NCBI RefSeq assembly: GCF_000340215.1
Contig: NW_006921533.1
Span: forward strand, 6,944,500-7,008,499
DNA from: Pseudocercospora fijiensis CIRAD86
Lineage: Eukaryota; Ascomycota; Dothideomycetes; Mycosphaerellales; Mycosphaerellaceae
DNA length: 64,000 bases
Reading direction: 5' to 3'
How positions within the stretch are numbered: the stretch's first letter is position 1; every line of letters starts with the position of its first letter. Of the stretch, positions 13,840-24,367 are shown one piece after another. The notes beneath the pieces were generated by a model that saw only the letters and a list, made by a program, of their open reading frames with translations, searched no databases and was not told where the DNA came from. A program made the position numbers and the translations under genes.

Positions 13840-14696
13840 AGCAATCGCGAATATCGTATATTCGATACGGACGGGAGGAAGCAATATATATTTAAGGTCT
13901 TACTACGCTATAATAAGAAGGGCGACGATAGGGAACAAGTAGAAGTCTTTACCTTAGAAGAACACGAATGCTCCCCGGTAACATACTATAACAATCTAAG
14001 GAATTATAGAGTTAACGTTATCTTTAGGCACTATATTAACGCTATTGCTACCGACTAGCAACTTAAGCTAAACTAGCTTCGACGTGCGGAATAGAACTAA
14101 TACTTAAATAAGATTATATATATATAAGCTTTCCGGATTAAGAAACAGTATCTAGACGAACTTATTAGCTCGGAAAAGGACTCATAGTAGAGGATTAGAC
14201 CGCTTTTCGACGTACTAGCTATAATATAGAGCCTCGACGATATATATACTAGTATATTCTATGCCCTATATACCGATTAGCAAGATCGGCATTAGGCTTC
14301 TACGATCTTTCTATACGCGCGGCTAAGCGGCTTTCGACATCTACGTAAGTTGTTTACTCTCGATAGTAGTTATATATCTAGTATATACGGTAGTGTCCTT
14401 TTAATAGTCGCCGGCATCGATGCCGAGAATTAGGTATACATTCTAGAATAGTGCTATATACGGTCGGAGTTAGAGGAAACATAGTCGTAGTTTTTATAGC
14501 ATCTCAAGGATTAGTTAGTACTTATAGACGAATTGTCCGCGACGGAGCACAGATCTCTAGTTAGCGATTAGTAGAAGGGCCTAGTTCCTATAGTAACGAA
14601 GGTATATAGTAGGCGTAAGATACACTACTACTACTATATATAGTACCTTACCGAGAACTTCGATAATAATTTTAGCCCTACTATTGCTAATACGAT
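13840..14696 (+). pseudogene. MULE transposase remnant, N-terminal part
   Basis: The forward frame shows a Mutator-like transposase. There is an N-terminal DNA-binding-like region with a Cys/His pair near 13,965. A DDE-type core follows, with LDSSYI..YGSVLL (about 14,360), an FLQHLKD-like segment (about 14,490), SDQQKGL (about 14,560) and a YLTENF segment (about 14,650) in the order usual for MULE transposases. Stops are TAG/TAA at glutamine positions. The frame runs directly into the left target duplication of the hAT insertion and resumes at 24,368 in phase, so one insertion broke one gene. The element was also inactivated by RIP. Confidence 0.75.
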
Positions 14697-14716
14697 TAGA
14701 CCCCGTAGTAGTTCGG
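14689..14716. repeat. hAT left target duplication and TIR
   Basis: AATACGAT (14,689-14,696) is the target-site duplication. The TIR TAGACCCCGTAGTAGTTCGG follows (14,697-14,716). The next 100 bp are rich in ggtttagttt-like motifs, possible subterminal transposase-binding repeats. Confidence 0.93.
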
Positions 14717-15020
14717 GTTGGTTTAGTTTGGTTTACTAAGCCGAAACTCTAGTTTAGTTTAGGTTAGTTTGCTAAGCAACTATATAAGTAGCTAGTTCGA
14801 ACTATATAATTTATCGGTTTTTAAGAAGTGTACGAATGTATACGTAGCTTTAAGCAAGCCCTTTGTAAGACTTAGCAGTGTAGCCGGCAGCGTGGCCGGC
14901 ATTTTTAGTCCTTAGTACTTATAGAATTTTCGAATCCTACTTAGGCTACGTGGTTATATAAAGGTACTTATATAACCTCAAATCTATAGACAATTAGCTA
15001 AGGGCACTAACTAATTAAAA

Positions 15021-15021
<1 letters not shown>

Positions 15022-15053
<32 letters not shown>
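15022..15053. repeat. (TA)n microsatellite
   Basis: An uninterrupted run of about 16 TA units lies inside the left end of the hAT element. Confidence 0.95.
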
Positions 15054-15056
<3 letters not shown>

Positions 15057-15129
15057 CATTATAGTTTAGTTCGGAAACTGCACTCCTTAGGTATGAATTT
15101 CATCCTTTCGTTTACAGTTTAATTCCCTA

Positions 15130-15610
15130 ACTGCTTAGCAGAATGTCTTTATCTAGATCTAGGTAGAACTTATCGATTTCCCTAGAAGTCCTCCTCTTTA
15201 AGAAGTTTATACACTTTCCTACCGAACTATTCGATAATATTAAGTACTAGGATAGCTCCTCCCTCGGTATCGGCATAGTATATAAAAGAGCTATAAGGCA
15301 GCTCTGTAGAACGTTCTACTAGTTACTCGCTATACTAAGGCCGAATGCTAGTTCGTTCCTTAGAACTCTTAGTTATTTAGGAGATATAAAAGGTAGGGTA
15401 GGTAGTAACTTCGTATTGTATAAGGAGGTAGAGGCTGCTATAGAAGAGGCCTTTAACCTATAGAAGATAGTGAAAGATATAGAGGCAGCTACAGGTCTAG
15501 GTACCTAGTTGAATTTCTAGTAGGTAGAGTATAAGGATATTTAGAGGGAGTATTAGGTAGAGTTGCGAAGGCAGGTATATAATATGCTCTAGAAAATAGG
15601 GATAGTGCCT
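15130..15610 (+). pseudogene. hAT cargo ORF, unrecognised
   Basis: A forward frame of about 160 residues runs from near 15,130 with TAG-only interruptions. It reads as a globular helical protein: a LEVLLFKKF segment, a YKRAIRQLCR segment, then an acidic and glutamine-rich helix. It is the only cargo frame seen on the plus strand. It retains somewhat more CpA and TpG than its neighbours, which might mean later or weaker RIP. The GCCGGC repeats at 15,735-15,795 lie just downstream. I do not recognise the family. Confidence 0.4.
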
Positions 15611-15734
15611 ATAACTATAACTATTAGGCTCTTTAACCTTCCTTATTTTTCCCTGTTTTCTTTTTATAAAAATCTAAACTAATACAAATCAACCGGAATA
15701 TCTATCTTCTTTTAGTTCTTTAAAAAACCTAGCA

Positions 15735-15795
15735 GCGTAGCTAGTAGCGTAGCCGGCAGCGTAGCCGGCAGCGTAGCCGGCAGCGTAGCCGGCCT
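15735..15795. repeat. GCCGGC tandem cluster
   Basis: Five copies of a 12-bp unit, gcgtagccggca, stand in tandem. Similar clusters of two or more occur near 14,880, 16,375, 16,960, 17,190, 17,905, 18,910, 20,315, 21,340, 22,805, 23,370, 24,035 and 24,175, all inside the hAT element. Confidence 0.85.
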
Positions 15796-16018
15796 TTTTA
15801 CTCCTTAGTACTAACGGGATTTTAGGAGACTTCTATTCCGTACGGCCAATAAAGTATACTATACTATATATATATGCTTAGAGAGTATTTAGAGCGCGGT
15901 ATACAGCGCCGTATAACAGCGGCTTATTTCGTATATAGAAAAGCTTATAGATAATACTACGAACATCCTTTCTACTAGAATATCTATCCTACCTAGCACC
16001 GTCTCGAATATAGACATT

Positions 16019-16655
16019 CTAGCCTTTTAGAATCTAATCGAGTGCTTTAAAATCCTTGTCTATAATCGTTATACGCTTCGCGTAGATAGCTATAAGGTTA
16101 ACCGCTAAAATAGTATTAGTATAGTCCGAAAAGAGGTAGAAGAGAAACATATATTCGAAGATACGAACTAGGTAGGCTTCTATAGCCTCTTAAAGGGCGC
16201 CTATCGCGGAGGCTTAGAAGCGAAGGTCCGTTCTATAATCCTAGGCAATTTCGCGAATAAGTCGTTAGAAAGGAGCTTTACGGATTAGGAGCTTAGAACT
16301 CTTCTAATACTGCCGAATCTTACGGAGGGCTACGGCTAAAGAAGGATTAGTAAAAAGATAGTAAGAATGCCGGCTACGCTACCGGCTACGCTGCCGGCTA
16401 TAAATAGGACTTACTTCCTAGGCGCTATCGACGCTTCGTACGATTGCTACTAGTAGTAGAAGCGCTAGTTGTCGTCTTGTATAGAGCCTTGCCCGCCGTT
16501 ATCTTACGCAGAGCCTTACTCGCGACGCCCTTTCTAGCACCGGAGCTAGCGGTAGCAGTAGTAGCCCTCTTACGTTAATGTACTATACTCGTTCTACTAT
16601 TTCCGGTCTTATTACGACCCGTAGAAGCACTAGGTCCCTTCTTACGAGGCGTCGT
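16019..16655 (-). pseudogene. histone H3-like pseudogene A, hAT cargo
   Basis: Reverse-strand exons encode a histone H3. Exon 1 (about 16,655-16,415) gives a basic Lys/Ser/Thr-rich tail of about 80 residues. A 79-bp intron (16,414-16,336; donor GTAAGT, acceptor TTTAG) contains GCCGGC repeats. Exon 2 (from 16,335) restores the H3 landmark GTVALR across the splice, then QYQKSSKLLIRKAPFQRL, REIAQD, DLRFQ and ALQEA, the alphaN-alpha1-alpha2 sequence of H3. A second intron ends at 16,105; its donor has decayed. Exon 3 gives NLIAIYAKRITI, matching the H3 loop-2 segment with His to Tyr, and ends at TAG 16,019. In-frame stops fall at conserved H3 glutamines (RYQ, PFQ, IAQD, RFQ, LQE), as RIP predicts. 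The original start codon is not identifiable. Confidence 0.85.
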
Positions 16656-17219
16656 AACTTAGTTAAGTAGACTCGCTATTATAAAAGTCGTCGAATTGAG
16701 GAAAAAAGTGCGTTACGAAGGTATACGAAGGCGCGCGCGGAGCGAGGGTATTACGGAGGTAGTAGATATAGAGCGTAGAGGTATAGGTATCGATACGAAG
16801 GTTGAATATAGCGGTAGTGTCGCGGTGTCGCTAAGCAATAGAGTAAGCTTCGCGCAAGCCTATATTATAGTAACGTTAGAGCAAGGAAAGAAGGCAGGCA
16901 CGGCTAAAAAAGGTAGGTACGGCTAAAAAAGGCAGGTACGGGAAACTTTGAAATATAGCCGGCATATGTAGCCGGTATAGTAATAGGCGAAAGCCTCCTT
17001 TTAATAAATAGCCGGCGTAATAATAGTATCTTACTATAGTATAGATATTCTTTAGTAATGCCTTTACTAGCTATAGTAATCTTATAAGTAACCTAGGCCT
17101 ATTGCTAGTAAATATAAGAAATATCAGGTAGGCTATACTAAACAAGCTAGTTATAACTCATTTAGTAGGAAAAGGCCTACTACCGTCTCTATATGCCGGC
17201 TACGAGTGCCGGCTATCGC

Positions 17220-17890
17220 TCTAAATTCAACTCCGCCCTATCTCGGAGGCTAAGGTACCGAGCGGAAACCCTATAGCTTATATTTACTCGGTTGTCGCGG
17301 AGCGCTTATAGGTAAGGTATTAGAAAAGAGTATAAAAAGTACGAGAAGAGTATCCTAGGATATAGGTCGTAAGTAAATAAGAGTAGTACGCCTAGTTATT
17401 TATATAGTACGTTACTCTATACGACTAAGAGCCTATATTATCTTATGCTTCGCTTATAAGACCTCGACTCTACTAGTATACTATCGATCTCTTCCTCGGT
17501 CGCTAATACGCTGTCTTAATTCTTCTTCGAGTTACCGGACTTAGTACGTATCTGTAGCTATATAATAGCGCTACGCATTATAAAGAATTTCTCGTTAAAG
17601 TTTCTCTCTCGTAGGCTTGCTATCTGCCTCGTAGTATAGAGGATCAAAGTGCTAATGCTAAAGAATCTCCTTATAGTTAGGATACTAGGGCTCCTTAGGA
17701 CCTTTATATTTTAGGTCTAAATAGAGACGTATTATAAACGTTCTATCGCCCTTTTGCTTACTACCCGCTAGGTCGCGATATACGAAGAAACTAATCTAAA
17801 TGTAGCTCGTCTCTATAATAGCCGGGTGAATATAGAGCGCTAGGTTTCTACTTCGTACCTTAGATTTAGGGACGGCGCGGAGATAAAATT
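17220..17890 (-). pseudogene. degenerate hAT-internal sequence, unrecognised
   Basis: Between the two H3 pseudogenes the reverse strand has short open stretches with TAG interruptions, but no continuous frame I can trust. GCCGGC doublets bound it on both sides (about 17,190 and 17,905), as they do other gene-like units in the element. It may be one more cargo gene with introns. Confidence 0.25.
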
Positions 17891-17978
17891 AGAAATATAG
17901 CCGGTACCTATAGCCGGTAAAAGGATGCGAAAATAGGCCTCCTCCTAGGTTAATCTAACGACTAAATACAATTTCTAA

Positions 17979-18620
17979 CTAATCCGCTATAAACCGACGC
18001 CGAATTTTAGCTAGAAGCTGTATATCTTTATTTTAAAGAGTAACCCGCTTCGTATAGATAGTAAGGAGGTTTAAAAGCTTAAGCTCGGTTACGAGAAATG
18101 CCTCCGTAGCTTCCTAAAGAGTACTAATCGCCTTAGCCGTAAATCGTATACTAGACCGAAAATCTAATATAATTTCTCGGACGAGTCGCTAGAAGGGAGT
18201 CTTAGGGATTAAAAGCTCGGTCCCTCTTTTATTTTAGAAAAGCCGGATCTAGCGAAGGGTAATAGTACCTAGTTTAAAGCGCCGCTTCTTTATCGTCGAG
18301 TCCTGCCTTATTCCCTTTCTTTTAATAGAAAGATAACTTTTCTTCGCGATAGTCTTCGTCCGCCTACTCTTTTTAGCCTTCTCCTATCTACCTATAGCCT
18401 TCTTATTTTTCGGTACTATTTTCCGAGGAACCCCCTTCCTTCGTATATACTACGGAGAGCCTTGCTCTTCCGATATCTCGTTCTCGCTATAGTCTCCCTA
18501 TACTTAGCTTGCTTTACCCTTACCCTTTAGCCTCTAAAGATATTTATCTACGCGTTTAGGCGACGAGGGTATATCGGTAGGACCTAGAAAATTAATAAGC
18601 ATATAATCGTAAGGAGACAT
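17979..18620 (-). pseudogene. histone H3-like pseudogene B, hAT cargo
   Basis: One uninterrupted reverse frame of 214 codons runs from ATG 18,620 to TAG 17,979, with ten internal TAG/TAA and no TGA. The N-terminal part of about 115 residues is long and Lys/Arg/Ser-rich, three times the usual H3 tail. The histone fold follows: GTITLRQIRLFQ, TELLIPKTPFQRLVREI, DFRSSIRF, LQEATEAFLV, TIYTKRVTL and KDIQL, in the order and spacing of H3. It differs from canonical H3 by two extra residues between alphaN and alpha1 and by a diverged loop-2 segment. Loop 1 has canonical length, so a CENP-A assignment is not supported. Stops again sit at conserved glutamines (LFQ, PFQ, LQE). No intron is needed, unlike pseudogene A. 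Confidence 0.9.
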
Positions 18621-19089
18621 TAATGCTTCTTACCTTCTAGAACAAATAGTCTTCTATTAAACCGCCTTAGTAGGTTATCGTTAGATTCGAATAAAGGATA
18701 GTAGCTTAAGGAAGGGGAGGTAGCCGGCTTAGGAAGGCCCGAAGAGCCGAATCCTTAAGGTATGTTTGTCTTTAAGAATATAGGGAAAGGGAAGAAGGAG
18801 AGGAAGAGCGAATAGAGAATTAGAAATAGTCCGTAGGTAAGCGGCGTCGGTTACTATAGCAACTAGTCTGTTTAGGTCCTAGGAATTCGAAACACATTTC
18901 GGACATATACCGGCTATATACGCCGGCTATATTACCTTATACGTAAACGCTTCGTCTCCTTAAAGCTGCTCTAAGCCTATATATATTTCCGCTTCTCGAC
19001 CCGGTATCGCCTTCTACCTCCGCCCTCCTCCTCTTCGTTATCGCTAATTAGGGTTTCGCTTAGACTAAATTTCGCATTCTCTTCGCGCT

Positions 19090-22000
19090 CCTAGGTTTCT
19101 TCGATCTTAAGGTTTTCTAATTCCTCGATTAACTCCTTTAGTATAATCTTTAGTAACCTGCCTTAGCGATTCTAGTAGAGGAGATAGTATCGGAATACTA
19201 TAATAGATTCGAAGGTAGTAGGCGAGTATATTCGATTAAAGCGGCCCTAGTAACGAGCGATACTAAAAGACCTCTTATAGCCTATACCTACGCTCGGGAT
19301 AGCGAGGACGTTCCGAGCGACCGACGCTATCGTTAGAAACTTAGGCTCTAACCGCTGCTATATAGCGAGAATATCGTCTCCGAATTCGTCTAGAAGACCG
19401 GTAAGATCTAGAGATTATTAGCCCTCTTTCCGAGCCTACGGGTTTATACTTACTCGCGCGCCGATAGAGATCGAACTCTTCTTTATTTACTTTAGTAGTT
19501 GCTTCCTCTTCTACCTCTACTTCCTACCTACGAAATAGATATAATGTCGGAGCCTTCTAAACCTTCTTTTTCTTTATAGGAGCTGCATTTAGACTAGTTT
19601 CTTTCCGACGCTCGTAGAACATCTTTTCTAGAATAGTCTAGTAATGCTTCGGCTATACCTCGTCCGCCTTCTATTCCGGCCTCTACTAGTATATATCCTT
19701 TTCTACTAGGTTAAGCAAGCACGCAACGCTATAGATATCCCCGAACGAGTTAAAGGTAGTACTATAATATTTATATAACTTAGTATAGGAGGTGTCTATA
19801 GCTTTCGTTATAGCTACTTTCTAGGGAACGCTCTTCTTAGCTAGCTTAGCTACGGTTTCCTCGAGCTTGTTAAAGAGCTAGTTATAGTATATAAAGACAA
19901 GGTAGATCGTCGGTCCTCGGGTTCTTCTAATCGTAGTAGTAACCTTCGCGTAATGCTTACTAATATCGACGAGATACTCTACTTAGCGCTATTCGGCGGC
20001 GGTAAGGCCGAGCTACTTAATACCCTCGGAACTCTAATAGATCTCGAGAGCGGTACGTAAAGTATATCCCCTCGTAACTATATAGAAAGTCGAATCGAAC
20101 CGGGTCTTAACGTCTTAGGTAAAACGGAGTAGGCGCTAAGGAGGCCGCTTTTACTATCGCTTATTCTATACGATATTCTAGGCATCGGTTTTAGGGCGCT
20201 CGATTAGGTTCTTTTAAATAGCCTCGAATCGGTTATATCTCTATAAGCTCGAGTTCGTATATATTGCTAGACGACGAAGCTAGAGAAAAAGAGTTAGAAC
20301 TATACTAGGTTGCCGGCTATAGGTGCCGGCTACGGACAAAAGTTATACCTTATACAAAACGAGAGCGAGGCTCTCTACCTTATCCCGTCTTATTGCTATA
20401 ATAAGTTTCTCGACTTTCGACTTTGCTTTATCCTTATCTAGGATCTTCTATTAGTCGTCGTTTAATAGTACAATTTTAAGCGTCTTAAAGAGGGCTCGGA
20501 TCGCGATTTAAACTATATAAGCGAGGTAGGGAAACTTCTATAGGGATATAACTAGCAACGACGTCGGCTCCGATTCGTTAGGGCTAGGGCTATTAATAGG
20601 CTCCTCTTTATCGTTATTATCGTACGTATTGTCGTACGTATCCGGAATCGTAGCGAGCTTAATATTCGGAAGATTAAGCTAGATTGTAGACCTTATAATC
20701 TCCTCTACGTACTCGACCCTATCGATACAATTAGTGATTTTAAAGACATATACGAGTAAATTGTATATATAACGCCTTATGTAATATTCGATTATTACTA
20801 GCGTTGTCCGTAGTAATCGAGATTAGTTTCGTTGTTACGCTAACCCTATCTATTGCCGTATAGACAAGCTTCGCTATATCCTTACTAGTATAGGAACCTA
20901 GAATTTCAGGGAATCCGATTATAAGTTCCTAGAGTTTCTAATCCGAATTAATAAAGTATAGTATAATCGAGAGGAAGGAGGCTCTTATAGTCCGGCTTAA
21001 CTAGCTATTAATAGTAATAGCTACTCGGCGAGTATTATAGAGGATCTCCCGAATGTCGTCTAACGCAGCCTCTTTATTCTTTTCGAATATAATACGCTAG
21101 GTTGTCGCGCCGAGAAATAGGGGACGGTAGTTTATAAGATATAGGTATATTTTCTATATAGACTCCCTTTCGTAGAAGTCTTCCGGAAGACCGTTTATAG
21201 CTAGCATTTCGTTTGCTAGTTGCTTAAAGTCTTCGGGGGAGAAATCGGTAGCCTTTAATCCTAGAGCTTCCTTAAGCGTAGCCTATAATAATTAGCTAGA
21301 CCTCTACGGTTGATTTAAGTAGCCGGAATCTATAGCTAGAATCTATAGCCGGCAGCTATAGCTAGTAGCTATAGCCGGCAGCTATAGCCGGCAGCTATAG
21401 CCGGTAGCTGTAGCCGGCAGCTATAGCCGGTAGCTATAGCCGGTATTTTAGAAGACGTACCTCTTTCTAGAACGCTATATCTATATTAACTCTCCTCTCT
21501 CTTTAAGATTCCCGATACTGTTTAGAATAGAGATAGTTCGTAGGCGATAAGTTCCTATCCCCTAGTTTCGGGTATTTCAAGATTAAACCGTAGAAGTTAT
21601 AGACAATTACTAGTTAACCTTTAAGTCGAGAAGTCGTATAACGGTGTAATGCCCCCTCTATAAAGAACTTCTAGAATATGTCCGTTCGCTCCTTACTCCC
21701 CTATCGTATCGAGTACTTCCGGAGTTTATACTCCTTCGAACGTAAGTATAAAGGGAACTATATCTTATAGACCTATTAATTGAACTGCTCTATATACTCG
21801 GGTTTCTAAAGATACGCCTAGCTAGCCTTTTCGAAGATTTCCGGGTTAATACTCGATATTCTTATATCTCCGAACAACCTTCTGCTTAGACTCCGTAAAG
21901 GTAAGGACTAGGTAGTAGTACCCTATAATAAATTCCTACTACTAGGATTCGGAGAGGATAAATCTAGCCCTAATCGTCGTCTAAGACTCGATAGGCTCGA

Positions 22001-22100
22001 AGGTAAGTATACGACCTCCTCTCGACGTTGTCGCAATCTCGCTTGTATACTAGACTGTTTCGACTATCGTCTCGTTATTACCCTTCCTAGTATAGCGCCT
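19090..22100 (-). pseudogene. hAT transposase, RIP-inactivated
   Basis: Reverse-strand frames show a hAT transposase in order. Near 20,960-20,780 is a DSDQKLQELIIGF-like stretch followed by TTDNASNN, the RNase-H core with a catalytic Asp. An intron at about 20,345-20,283 contains GCCGGC repeats. Near 20,115 is DVKTRFDSTF, the hAT DxRTRWNST-type motif, then an alpha-helical region with YNQLFNKLEE and KYYSTT. At the C-terminus (about 19,340-19,130) is the hAT dimerisation domain with VLAIPSVGIGYKRSFSIAR. The N-terminal zinc-finger region (above about 21,500) is too decayed to define. Stops are TAG/TAA. It is the source of the mobility of the 9.66-kb element and is now dead. Confidence 0.85.
21330..21445. 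repeat. GCCGGC 12-bp tandem array
   Basis: About nine units of agctatagccgg stand in tandem on the plus strand, some changed to agctagt. It is the longest cluster of the motif in the element. It falls within the transposase gene region, probably in an intron. Confidence 0.85.
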
Positions 22101-22349
22101 AGTATATATACAATGTCGGTCGGTATGTTTTAAGGTTTCGTACGGTAAGGTAAGGACTTAGGAGTAGTAGATGTATACTAGTAGCTATAGGGAAACACCC
22201 TTTCTTTTATAGCATCGTATCGTTAGGAACAGCTAGGTAGTAAATAGCTAGCTACCTTTTTTTTTGTTTCCTAGCTACCTAACTACTAGATTTTTTTTCC
22301 TAGCTACCCTAGCTAGCCTAACTACTAGAATTTCTTTCCTAGCTACCCT

Positions 22350-23760
22350 AACTACCTAAATTTTGCCTTCTATACGGCGGCTCTCTCCTACTAACGGAAC
22401 CGAGCTACTATACCTAACGAATCTAAGCTCGTTTTTAGTCTCAATCTATCCTCTTTCGGTATAAGATACTCGATAAGCAAATGCTTAGGCCGAGTCTAAC
22501 TACGAAACCTAAGACTAACTAATAGCTCTATTAACTAATCCTAATCCTCGAACTCCTTCCGCTTCTTAGTAAAGACCTTAAAGAGCGCTCGAGCTTCTTC
22601 GGGTGCCTACGGAGTAGTCGAGATAAAGCCGTATCGCTGAAATAGGTAATCCTTCGGAGGCTTATATAGAGATTTAGAGAATTCTAACGCTAACCTATCC
22701 TACTAGTAGCTTAGATTCCGGATACAAGCCCTCTCTGCCTTAGTAAAGATTTTATATAGTAGTAGCACTCTGCCTTCGAGAAATGCTTTCTATTTAACTG
22801 TTAGTATCTGCCGGCTACGAACGCCGGCTATATATGCCGAGTATAGAATAATTACCTATACCTCTTCCTCCTATAGTAACACTTCTACCGTCCCTAGATA
22901 CCTAGCCCCGATCGTATTAATCGTAAGCTACTTTGCCTTTATAGACGCAAAGGCTTCGCTCTAATACTAATAAAGAAACTTCTACTCTATATCGAGGATA
23001 TAAAGACGACTAGTCTCGATTCTAATCCTTACTAGCTTTTCGTAGTAGCTTTAACTATAATTTTCTAGATTAATAGGACTTATACCTTAGCCCTTTACTA
23101 GTATCTTGTTTCTTTAACTATACTCGATCTACTCCTAGCGCTTATCGTCTATAGCGTTAGGCCCTAAGACTATACCTATTACTAGATCGACGTATAGTAT
23201 CTCCTCGCTTTTTTTAGTTCCTTTATTCGTAGTATTAAGCTCTATCGCGGCATCCTAAACTCTAGTATTGTTGTTCTCGGCTATCTAAACATCTCCGTTA
23301 CTATCGGTCGTATCGATAGAGGTAGCGGCTATAGGTCTAAATACTATTAGTTAACGTGTTAAAGAAAAATATGCCGGCTATAGCTGCCGGCTACGGCTGC
23401 CGGCTATAGCTGCTAGCTACGGCCGCTAGCTAGATTGACTTACGCTGCTAGAACTTTACGCTCGAAAACTAGCTGTAATTCTTTCCTCCTTTTAGCCTTC
23501 TCTTAAGTTGTCTTCTTATTCTAACCTTTACTTTTTTCTATAGGCGCTAGCTATCGATAGAATGCCTTATTCCGCGCCTTTCTTCTCTTATCTTTAGCTC
23601 TTTTATCCTTATCTATCTTATCCTTTCTCTCGCGGTCTCGTACGGAATTCTTCTTCGTAGAGTACTCCTCTTTAGTCTTACGCTTTTTAGTTAGACGCTT
23701 AGGCAAAACAAACTCGCGGTCTTTAGTTCTATCTTCTATTTAGCGCGCGGCGCGCTTCTC
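22350..23760 (-). pseudogene. hAT cargo gene, Lys-rich, unrecognised
   Basis: The reverse strand has a first segment (about 23,760-23,430) coding a strongly basic, charged protein with KRLTKKRK and DKDKRAKDKRR runs. A GTAAGT donor and an intron-like stretch with GCCGGC repeats (about 23,425-23,350) follow, then a less charged, globular-looking frame (about 23,330-22,845). A second apparent intron with GCCGGC repeats ends in tactaacag (about 22,800), followed by a further frame to about 22,550. Stops are TAG/TAA. The organisation, with introns carrying the same repeat, matches H3 pseudogene A and the transposase. Function unknown. Confidence 0.45.
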
Positions 23761-23919
23761 TCTTACTATTATAAGGGAAAGGGGCGGGGGCGTAGCGTAT
23801 AGTAGTTATTGTCGGTATAGGTATAGAGGAAGAAGTTGAAAGTGTAAGAATATCGCGAAGCCCTAATTATTGCCGCCTACGTAACGTTATATAGGTAAGC
23901 TTTCGCAACTACGGCAACT

Positions 23920-24225
23920 ACGCCCCGGTAATAGTAACTACGCCCTAGTAACGGCAACTACGCCCTAGCAACGGTAACTACGCCCTAGCAACGGTAATAA
24001 AGCGTAGTAAATACAACCTAGTAACTATTATAGCCGGCAATCGTAGCCGGCAGTCGAATAAGAGTGTCCTTATAGCAAAACTACGCCCTAGTAACGGCAA
24101 CTACGCCCTAGCAACGGCAACTACGCCCTAGCAACGGCAAAAGAGCGTAGTAAATGTAATAGAGTTACTATTATAGCCGGCAATCGTAGCCGGCAGTCGA
24201 ATAAGAGTGTCCTTATAGTAAAACT
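23920..24225. repeat. subterminal tandem repeats of the hAT right end
   Basis: A unit of about 150 bp is present twice. Each copy contains three or four 20-bp copies of aactacgccctagcaacggc followed by a tagccggcaatcgtagccgg doublet. Position just inside the right TIR suggests transposase-binding subterminal repeats. Confidence 0.75.
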
Positions 24226-24339
24226 AATACAGTCTCTAGTTTAAACTAGGAATCTATATAGTTCGAAAAAACTAAACCGGAACTAGGGAGCTAGTTCGCC
24301 GCTAAGAAACCAAACTATATACGTTTAGTAGTTCGGAAA

Positions 24340-24367
24340 CCGAACTACTACGGGGTCTAAATACGAT
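24340..24367. repeat. hAT right TIR and target duplication
   Basis: The reverse complement of the 20-bp left TIR lies at 24,340-24,359, followed by AATACGAT (24,360-24,367), the second target-duplication copy. The terminal bases also form a hairpin: tagtagttcgg aaa ccgaactacta (24,327-24,351). Confidence 0.93.

What the first reader, a model, noticed from the sequence alone, without database searches (positions are those of the whole stretch)
15990..18620. Two histone H3-fold genes carried inside a hAT transposon
Within the 9.66-kb hAT lie two distinct degenerate genes whose deduced proteins align with histone H3 across the whole fold. Pseudogene A (16,655-16,019) has an intron whose removal restores GTVALR, then KLLIRKAPFQRL, REIAQD and AKRITI. 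Pseudogene B (18,620-17,979) is one frame of 213 residues with TELLIPKTPFQRLVREI, LQEATEAFLV and KDIQL. In both, stops fall on conserved H3 glutamines, so they were once intact proteins. A DNA transposon carrying its own H3 variants could influence chromatin at its locus, evade silencing or affect target choice. I know of no described hAT with such cargo.
Basis: partly seen in the sequence, partly recalled or inferred. Interest (0 to 1): 0.93.

Follow-up and report, generated by a model that had tools for sequence, protein, structure and literature searches.

The report
Fossil transposon carrying two histone-like genes
A long-dead jumping gene, present in hundreds of copies in a fungal genome, carries two different histone H3-like genes; this cargo was published in 2019, but one gene's introns and the deep split between the two do not fit the published account of how it was captured.

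Summary
Window 14697-24359 is a complete 9,663-bp hAT element: perfect 20-bp TIRs, 8-bp TSD, broken transposase on the minus strand. Two H3-fold pseudogenes follow it: with X at stops, B (18620-17979) scores 77.5 bits and A (16699-16019) 68.1 bits to PF00125. They belong to the family: 32 of 34 scored copies span both uninterrupted, and 34 of 40 transposase matches on contigs C1 and C2 have A within 6 kb. But this is published: Dhillon et al. 2019 (PMC6710886, Pseudocercospora fijiensis), and a similar hAT in Manning et al. 2013 (PMC3538342). New here: A has two introns, and the paper's '16-aa insertion' is a 48-nt intron, against its 'no introns, captured transcript' inference. A and B are only 43-54% identical, no nearer to each other than to host H3, yet form one clade (95/93) sharing Tyr where six cellular H3/CENP-A rows have His. 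Of 150 scored histone hits in the genome, 148 carry stops; the other two are cellular genes. Whether the histones ever served the element is unproven.

The parts
14697..24359 (-). hAT element, 9663 bp, transposase and both H3-like genes on the minus strand
   Evidence: same borders in other copies; TIR and TSD
14689..14696 (.). 8-bp target-site duplication, left copy
   Evidence: AATACGAT, identical on the right
24360..24367 (.). 8-bp target-site duplication, right copy
14697..14716 (+). 20-bp terminal inverted repeat, left
   Evidence: 20 of 20 matches with the right end
24340..24359 (-). 20-bp terminal inverted repeat, right
20797..21069 (-). hAT transposase catalytic region (broken)
   Evidence: tblastn with hAT frames of the same genome: 2 of 4 queries match, E=5e-7 (34%) and 4e-6 (33%)
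19256..19375 (-). probable hAT C-terminal dimerisation region (weak)
   Evidence: Pfam Dimer_Tnp_hAT E=0.02, 15.1 bits, under the 21.4 cut-off
17979..18620 (-). H3-like pseudogene B, one exon, 213 codons, fold at 18371-18000, long basic N-terminal tail
   Evidence: PF00125 E=1.3e-21; PDB H3.3 90 bits
16019..16699 (-). H3-like pseudogene A, three exons (exon 1 ends 16415; exon 2 16335-16153; exon 3 from 16104); start codon not found
   Evidence: PF00125 E=1.1e-18; PDB H3.3 88 bits; gene model
16336..16414 (-). intron 1 of A (79 nt here; 69-102 nt in the other five copies measured)
   Evidence: GTAAGT donor in 15 of 15 aligned copies, TACTAAT branch in 14 of 15, TTAG acceptor in 15 of 15; branch+acceptor of the main form exact at 305 places in the genome, control 0
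16105..16152 (-). intron 2 of A, 48 nt (the published 16-aa insertion)
   Evidence: branch and TTTTAG acceptor in 15 of 15 copies, donor begins GT in 6 of 15; of 292 exact matches genome-wide 49 keep GTATGT, the rest have A for G at one or both of two positions
15143..15665 (+). uncharacterised + strand frame (174 codons with stops), on a block absent from subfamily copies L043 and L044
21320..21443 (.). largest of several arrays of a 12-13-bp TAGCCGGCAGC-type repeat in the element

Best explanation
This is one RIP-inactivated copy of a high-copy hAT DNA transposon whose normal gene set included a transposase and two divergent histone H3-like genes (A with two introns, B without). Shown: the cargo lies inside the TIRs, is present across the family and the subfamilies sampled, and 148 of the 150 scored histone hits of the genome are broken. 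Inferred: an H3 gene entered the hAT lineage once, duplicated inside it, diverged strongly, and was spread to hundreds of sites by the transposase before RIP (CpA to TpA mutation of repeats in meiosis) killed the copies. Function while alive is not shown; I think passenger cargo somewhat likelier than useful accessory genes, about 0.6 to 0.4.
For: TIR/TSD; transposase similarity; PF00125 hits for A and B; 772 first-look histone candidates in the genome, 150 scored, 148 with stops, the two clean ones being cellular H3 (L001) and, by my reading, CENP-A (L045); 32 of 34 scored candidate copies span A and B uninterrupted, a further one in two pieces; A follows B in 5 of 5 B-seeded subfamily copies, L003 partly; 34 of 40 transposase matches on C1+C2 have A within 6 kb, random placement gives about 0.5 per contig; A+B clade 95/93 and Tyr in 6 of 6 A and 7 of 7 B rows where six cellular rows have His; published account of the same kind of element.
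Against: The tree rests on 92 columns with long branches and X at stops, so A+B as one clade could be long-branch attraction. By identity A is nearer to host H3 (53-64%) than to B (43-54%), and B is as near or slightly nearer to host H3 (52-57%) than to A, which would also fit two captures. DUF659, reported by the paper, was not found by my Pfam scans; the dimerisation domain scored under its cut-off. One of 34 scored copies lacks A, and 6 of 40 transposase matches have no exact A match within 6 kb.
Confidence: 0.9

Rival explanations
1. Published view: a spliced H3 transcript or retrocopy of the host gene was captured by the hAT; the two copies in an element differ by a 16-aa insertion that arose by mutation.
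For: Paper text. B has no intron and spans the host exon junctions in one frame.
Against: A has an intron one codon (3 nt, same phase) from the host's second intron, and the '16-aa insertion' is a 48-nt intron with donor, branch point and acceptor whose removal restores the H3 alignment. The two genes are 43-54% identical in the fold, not near-copies. AU test disfavours A with host H3, p=0.044.
Confidence: 0.1
2. Genomic capture: an intron-bearing H3 gene entered the hAT, A kept its intron near the original position and gained a second, B lost its introns or came by a retro-step.
For: Intron 1 of A is displaced by one codon, same phase, from host intron 2.
Against: The position is near but not identical, and intron 2 of A has no counterpart in host H3 as read; independent intron gain cannot be excluded.
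Confidence: 0.5
3. The H3-like pair served the element (for example chromatin at its copies, expression or escape from silencing).
For: A follows B in 5 of 5 B-seeded subfamily copies, L003 partly; excess of third-position transversions in A's fold between subfamilies, p=0.028-0.048 in three related comparisons; an H3-like hAT gene with ESTs in another order of fungi.
Against: B's fold not significant in five comparisons (p=0.12-0.65), A against L042 not significant (p=0.45), tails show no constraint; the comparisons share one clade and are not independent; no correction for multiple tests.
Confidence: 0.4
4. Chance insertion of histone pseudogenes in this one copy.
For: None found.
Against: Many copies carry them.
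Confidence: 0.01

Closest known systems
Histone H3-carrying hAT of Pseudocercospora fijiensis (Dhillon et al. 2019, PMC6710886; abstract, Results, Discussion and Methods read)
   Same: Full-length size class 9.5-9.9 kb, 20-bp TIR, 8-bp TSD, two H3-like genes per full-length element, CpA-to-TpA RIP, original H3 on scaffold 6 (here contig C6), genome of about 74 Mb; very probably this very family and genome.
   Different: Paper reads the cargo as intronless copies of one captured transcript with a 16-aa insertion; here A has two introns, and A and B are deeply diverged. Paper found DUF659 and no dimerisation domain; here a weak dimerisation match and no DUF659 hit.
H3L-carrying hAT of Pyrenophora tritici-repentis (Manning et al. 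2013, PMC3538342; section on transduplication read)
   Same: hAT with TIRs, transposase and an H3-like gene with insertions in its tail.
Pack-MULE type transduplication in plants (mentioned in PMC6710886; not searched)
   Same: Host gene carried between TIRs of a DNA transposon.
   Different: Different superfamily; usually fragments (recalled).

Membership tests
hAT DNA transposon | terminal inverted repeats | tested here: met
   20-bp perfect TIR
hAT DNA transposon | 8-bp target-site duplication | tested here: met
   AATACGAT here; 6 of 7 other copies checked have identical 8-bp TSDs, the seventh has altered ends
hAT DNA transposon | hAT transposase with catalytic region | tested here: met
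   tblastn with hAT frames of the same genome, 2 of 4 match, E=5e-7 and 4e-6; no DUF659 or other hAT catalytic Pfam hit
hAT DNA transposon | C-terminal dimerisation domain PF05699 | tested here: inconclusive
   E=0.02, 15.1 bits, below cut-off 21.4
Histone H3 (gene B) | core histone fold profile and H3 as best relative | tested here: met
   PF00125 E=1.3e-21; the 60 PDB matches shown are H3 variants
Histone H3 (gene A) | core histone fold profile and H3 as best relative | tested here: met
   PF00125 E=1.1e-18; the 60 PDB matches shown are H3 variants
Histone H3 (A and B) | groups with cellular H3 rather than CENP-A | tested here: inconclusive
   A+B form their own clade beside cellular H3 and CENP-A
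Published H3-carrying hAT of P. fijiensis | length 9.5-9.9 kb, 20-bp TIR, 8-bp TSD, two H3-like genes, RIP | tested here: met
   organism name itself inferred, the genome here is unnamed

The most novel reading that the evidence does not exclude
A lineage of fungal hAT transposons kept a pair of specialised H3 variants, intron-bearing A and long-tailed B, as its own accessory genes over a long period, changing a conserved position (His to Tyr in both; by recall H3 113, an H3-H3 contact), so that element-encoded nucleosomes could mark or protect its copies; the Pyrenophora H3L would belong to the same lineage rather than be an independent capture.
Probability: 0.25. Interest if true: 0.75.

Novelty: already known. 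Interest (0 to 1): 0.3.

Why it matters
It shows that a 2019 case presented as transcript capture by a DNA transposon does not fit that mechanism for one of its two genes: the element carries an intron-containing H3 gene and a second, deeply diverged one. That turns 'one housekeeping gene captured and multiplied' into a testable question of whether transposons can keep their own histone variants.

Tried and rejected
Six-frame Pfam scans of the whole element found only the two histones. Pfam on pieces found no other domain over its cut-off: the + strand frame at 15.1-15.7 kb, the 17.1-17.9 kb stretch and the pieces of 21.5-24 kb gave nothing; a bacterial PH match (E=0.02-0.12, under cut-off) is taken as chance. 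In one search the + strand piece was given in the wrong frame and was repeated in the right one. A PDB search with a transposase piece gave one unrelated hit at E=0.015, taken as chance. A first transversion count for B used a frame two bases off and was redone. Row A_L039 was dropped from the tree because a TIR cuts off the 3' end of A in that copy. Copies searched with the A-B region cannot show elements that lack it, hence the separate transposase-seeded count: only contigs C1 and C2, 40 of 271 exact matches, distance only, orientation not checked; 6 of those 40 have no exact A match within 6 kb, two of the six have one at about 11.5 kb. A right-end search (40 scored of 871 candidates) and a left-end pattern count (236 matches) were run but not cross-compared with the histones. 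No structure prediction was run.

Full report
What was checked. The window lies in a 73.9-Mb genome of 30 contigs. Bases 1 to about 32,000 are at about 40% GC and stop-ridden; the rest is at about 51% and gene-rich.

The transposase. On the minus strand, 21069-20797 matches hAT frames elsewhere in the same genome (2 of 4 queries, E=5e-7 and 4e-6), and 19375-19256 weakly matches the hAT dimerisation domain (E=0.02, under the cut-off). My Pfam scans did not report DUF659.

The histones. With X at every stop, B (18620-17979) and A (16699-16019) match PF00125 at 77.5 and 68.1 bits; the 60 best solved relatives shown for each are H3 variants. A genome-wide PF00125 search had 772 first-look candidates; of the 150 scored, 148 carry stops. 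The two without are the cellular H3 on contig C6 (L001) and, by my reading of its translation, a CENP-A gene on C5 (L045). So no intact element-borne H3 was found among those scored; the other candidates were not scored.

Cargo of the family, not of one copy. A search with 15000-19000 scored 34 of 644 candidate copies; 32 (the window included) span both genes uninterrupted, the 31 others at 94-97% identity; one more spans them in two pieces and one lacks A. Five B-seeded subfamily copies at about 75-89% identity (L003, L039, L042, L043, L044) also hold B then A in the same order; L003's fetched stretch ends inside A. Seeded instead with a transposase 30-mer (271 exact matches), 34 of the 40 matches on C1 and C2 have an exact A-intron match within 6 kb, against about 0.5 per contig for random positions.

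Introns of A. In 15 aligned copies intron 1 begins GTAAGT in all 15, has a TACTAAT branch site in 14 (TGCTAGT in L039) and a TTAG acceptor in all; its length is 69-102 nt in the six copies measured. Removal restores LGTVALRKI, as in H3. Branch plus acceptor in the main-family form occurs exactly at 305 places, control 0. Intron 2 is 48 nt in all six copies measured, with a TACTAAT branch site in 13 of 15 (TGCTAAT in L041 and L043) and TTTTAG in 15; its donor begins with GT in 6 of 15 copies, and genome-wide 49 of 292 exact matches keep GTATGT, the rest having A for G at one or both of two positions, as RIP would make. Against L041, the four subfamily copies have 0 transversions in its 48 positions. 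The PDB alignment shows it as a 16-residue gap: this is the 16-aa insertion of the 2019 paper. The host H3 gene's second intron, read by eye, sits one codon upstream of A's intron 1 in the same phase. The paper's inference of an intronless captured transcript therefore does not hold for A; B is intronless.

Relationship of A and B. Over the fold they are 43-54% identical; A is 53-64% (window copy 64%) and B 52-57% identical to host H3. A tree of 18 rows puts A and B in one clade (95/93) apart from cellular H3 and CENP-A; holding A with host H3 is disfavoured (AU p=0.044). All 6 A and 7 B rows carry Tyr where host H3, host CENP-A and H3.3 have His, as have the three recalled rows typed; by recalled numbering this is H3 position 113.

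Selection. Transversions by codon position between subfamilies and L041: A's fold shows third-position excess in three related comparisons (14/86 v 13/172, 14/86 v 14/172, 15/86 v 16/172; p=0.028, 0.041, 0.048) but not against L042 (p=0.45); B's fold is not significant in five comparisons (p=0.12-0.65); the tails show none. This is too weak to claim function. RIP context: 41 of 64 (A) and 27 of 41 (B) biallelic transitions in ten main copies are in CpA/TpG context, with 9 and 1 transversions.

Known already. PMC6710886 (abstract, Results, Discussion, Methods read) describes in Pseudocercospora fijiensis 784 H3-like sequences in 471 hAT elements of one family, full length 9.5-9.9 kb with 20-bp TIR, 8-bp TSD, two H3-like genes per full-length element, all copies but the original inactivated by RIP. 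PMC3538342 (section on transduplication read) describes the first case, in Pyrenophora. PMC13041039 (2026; passages only) repeats the 2019 finding. Judged from the listings, six library searches showed no paper that revises it; subscription papers are not held, and PMC8616336 was seen only as a listing.

Verdict. The element and its H3 cargo are real and already published; the intron structure of A and the depth of the A-B split are additions that change the published origin story. Function in the element remains open.

Noticed in passing
14697-24359: A 7-base core TAGCCGG/CCGGCTA, mostly in 12-13-bp repeats or pairs, occurs 38 times in the element (3.9 per kb) against 0.36 per kb in the other RIPped DNA and 0 in the gene part; none lies in the exons of A or B as modelled, three lie in A's intron 1; perhaps a transposase-binding motif.
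   Followed up: partly
14825-15805: A block of about 0.93-0.97 kb with a + strand frame of 174 codons is missing from subfamily copies L043 and L044, which join the left end straight to the region just past A; the same short repeat lies at its borders.
   Followed up: partly
L039:481: A TIR sequence lies right at the 3' end of A in this copy, suggesting a shortened derivative or nested end.
   Followed up: no
L045: What I read as the host CENP-A gene, without stops in its exons, with an intron in its fold region.
   Followed up: no
L048, L049: Five of 47 genome matches to the hAT dimerisation domain carry no stop there, these two loci among them.
   Followed up: no
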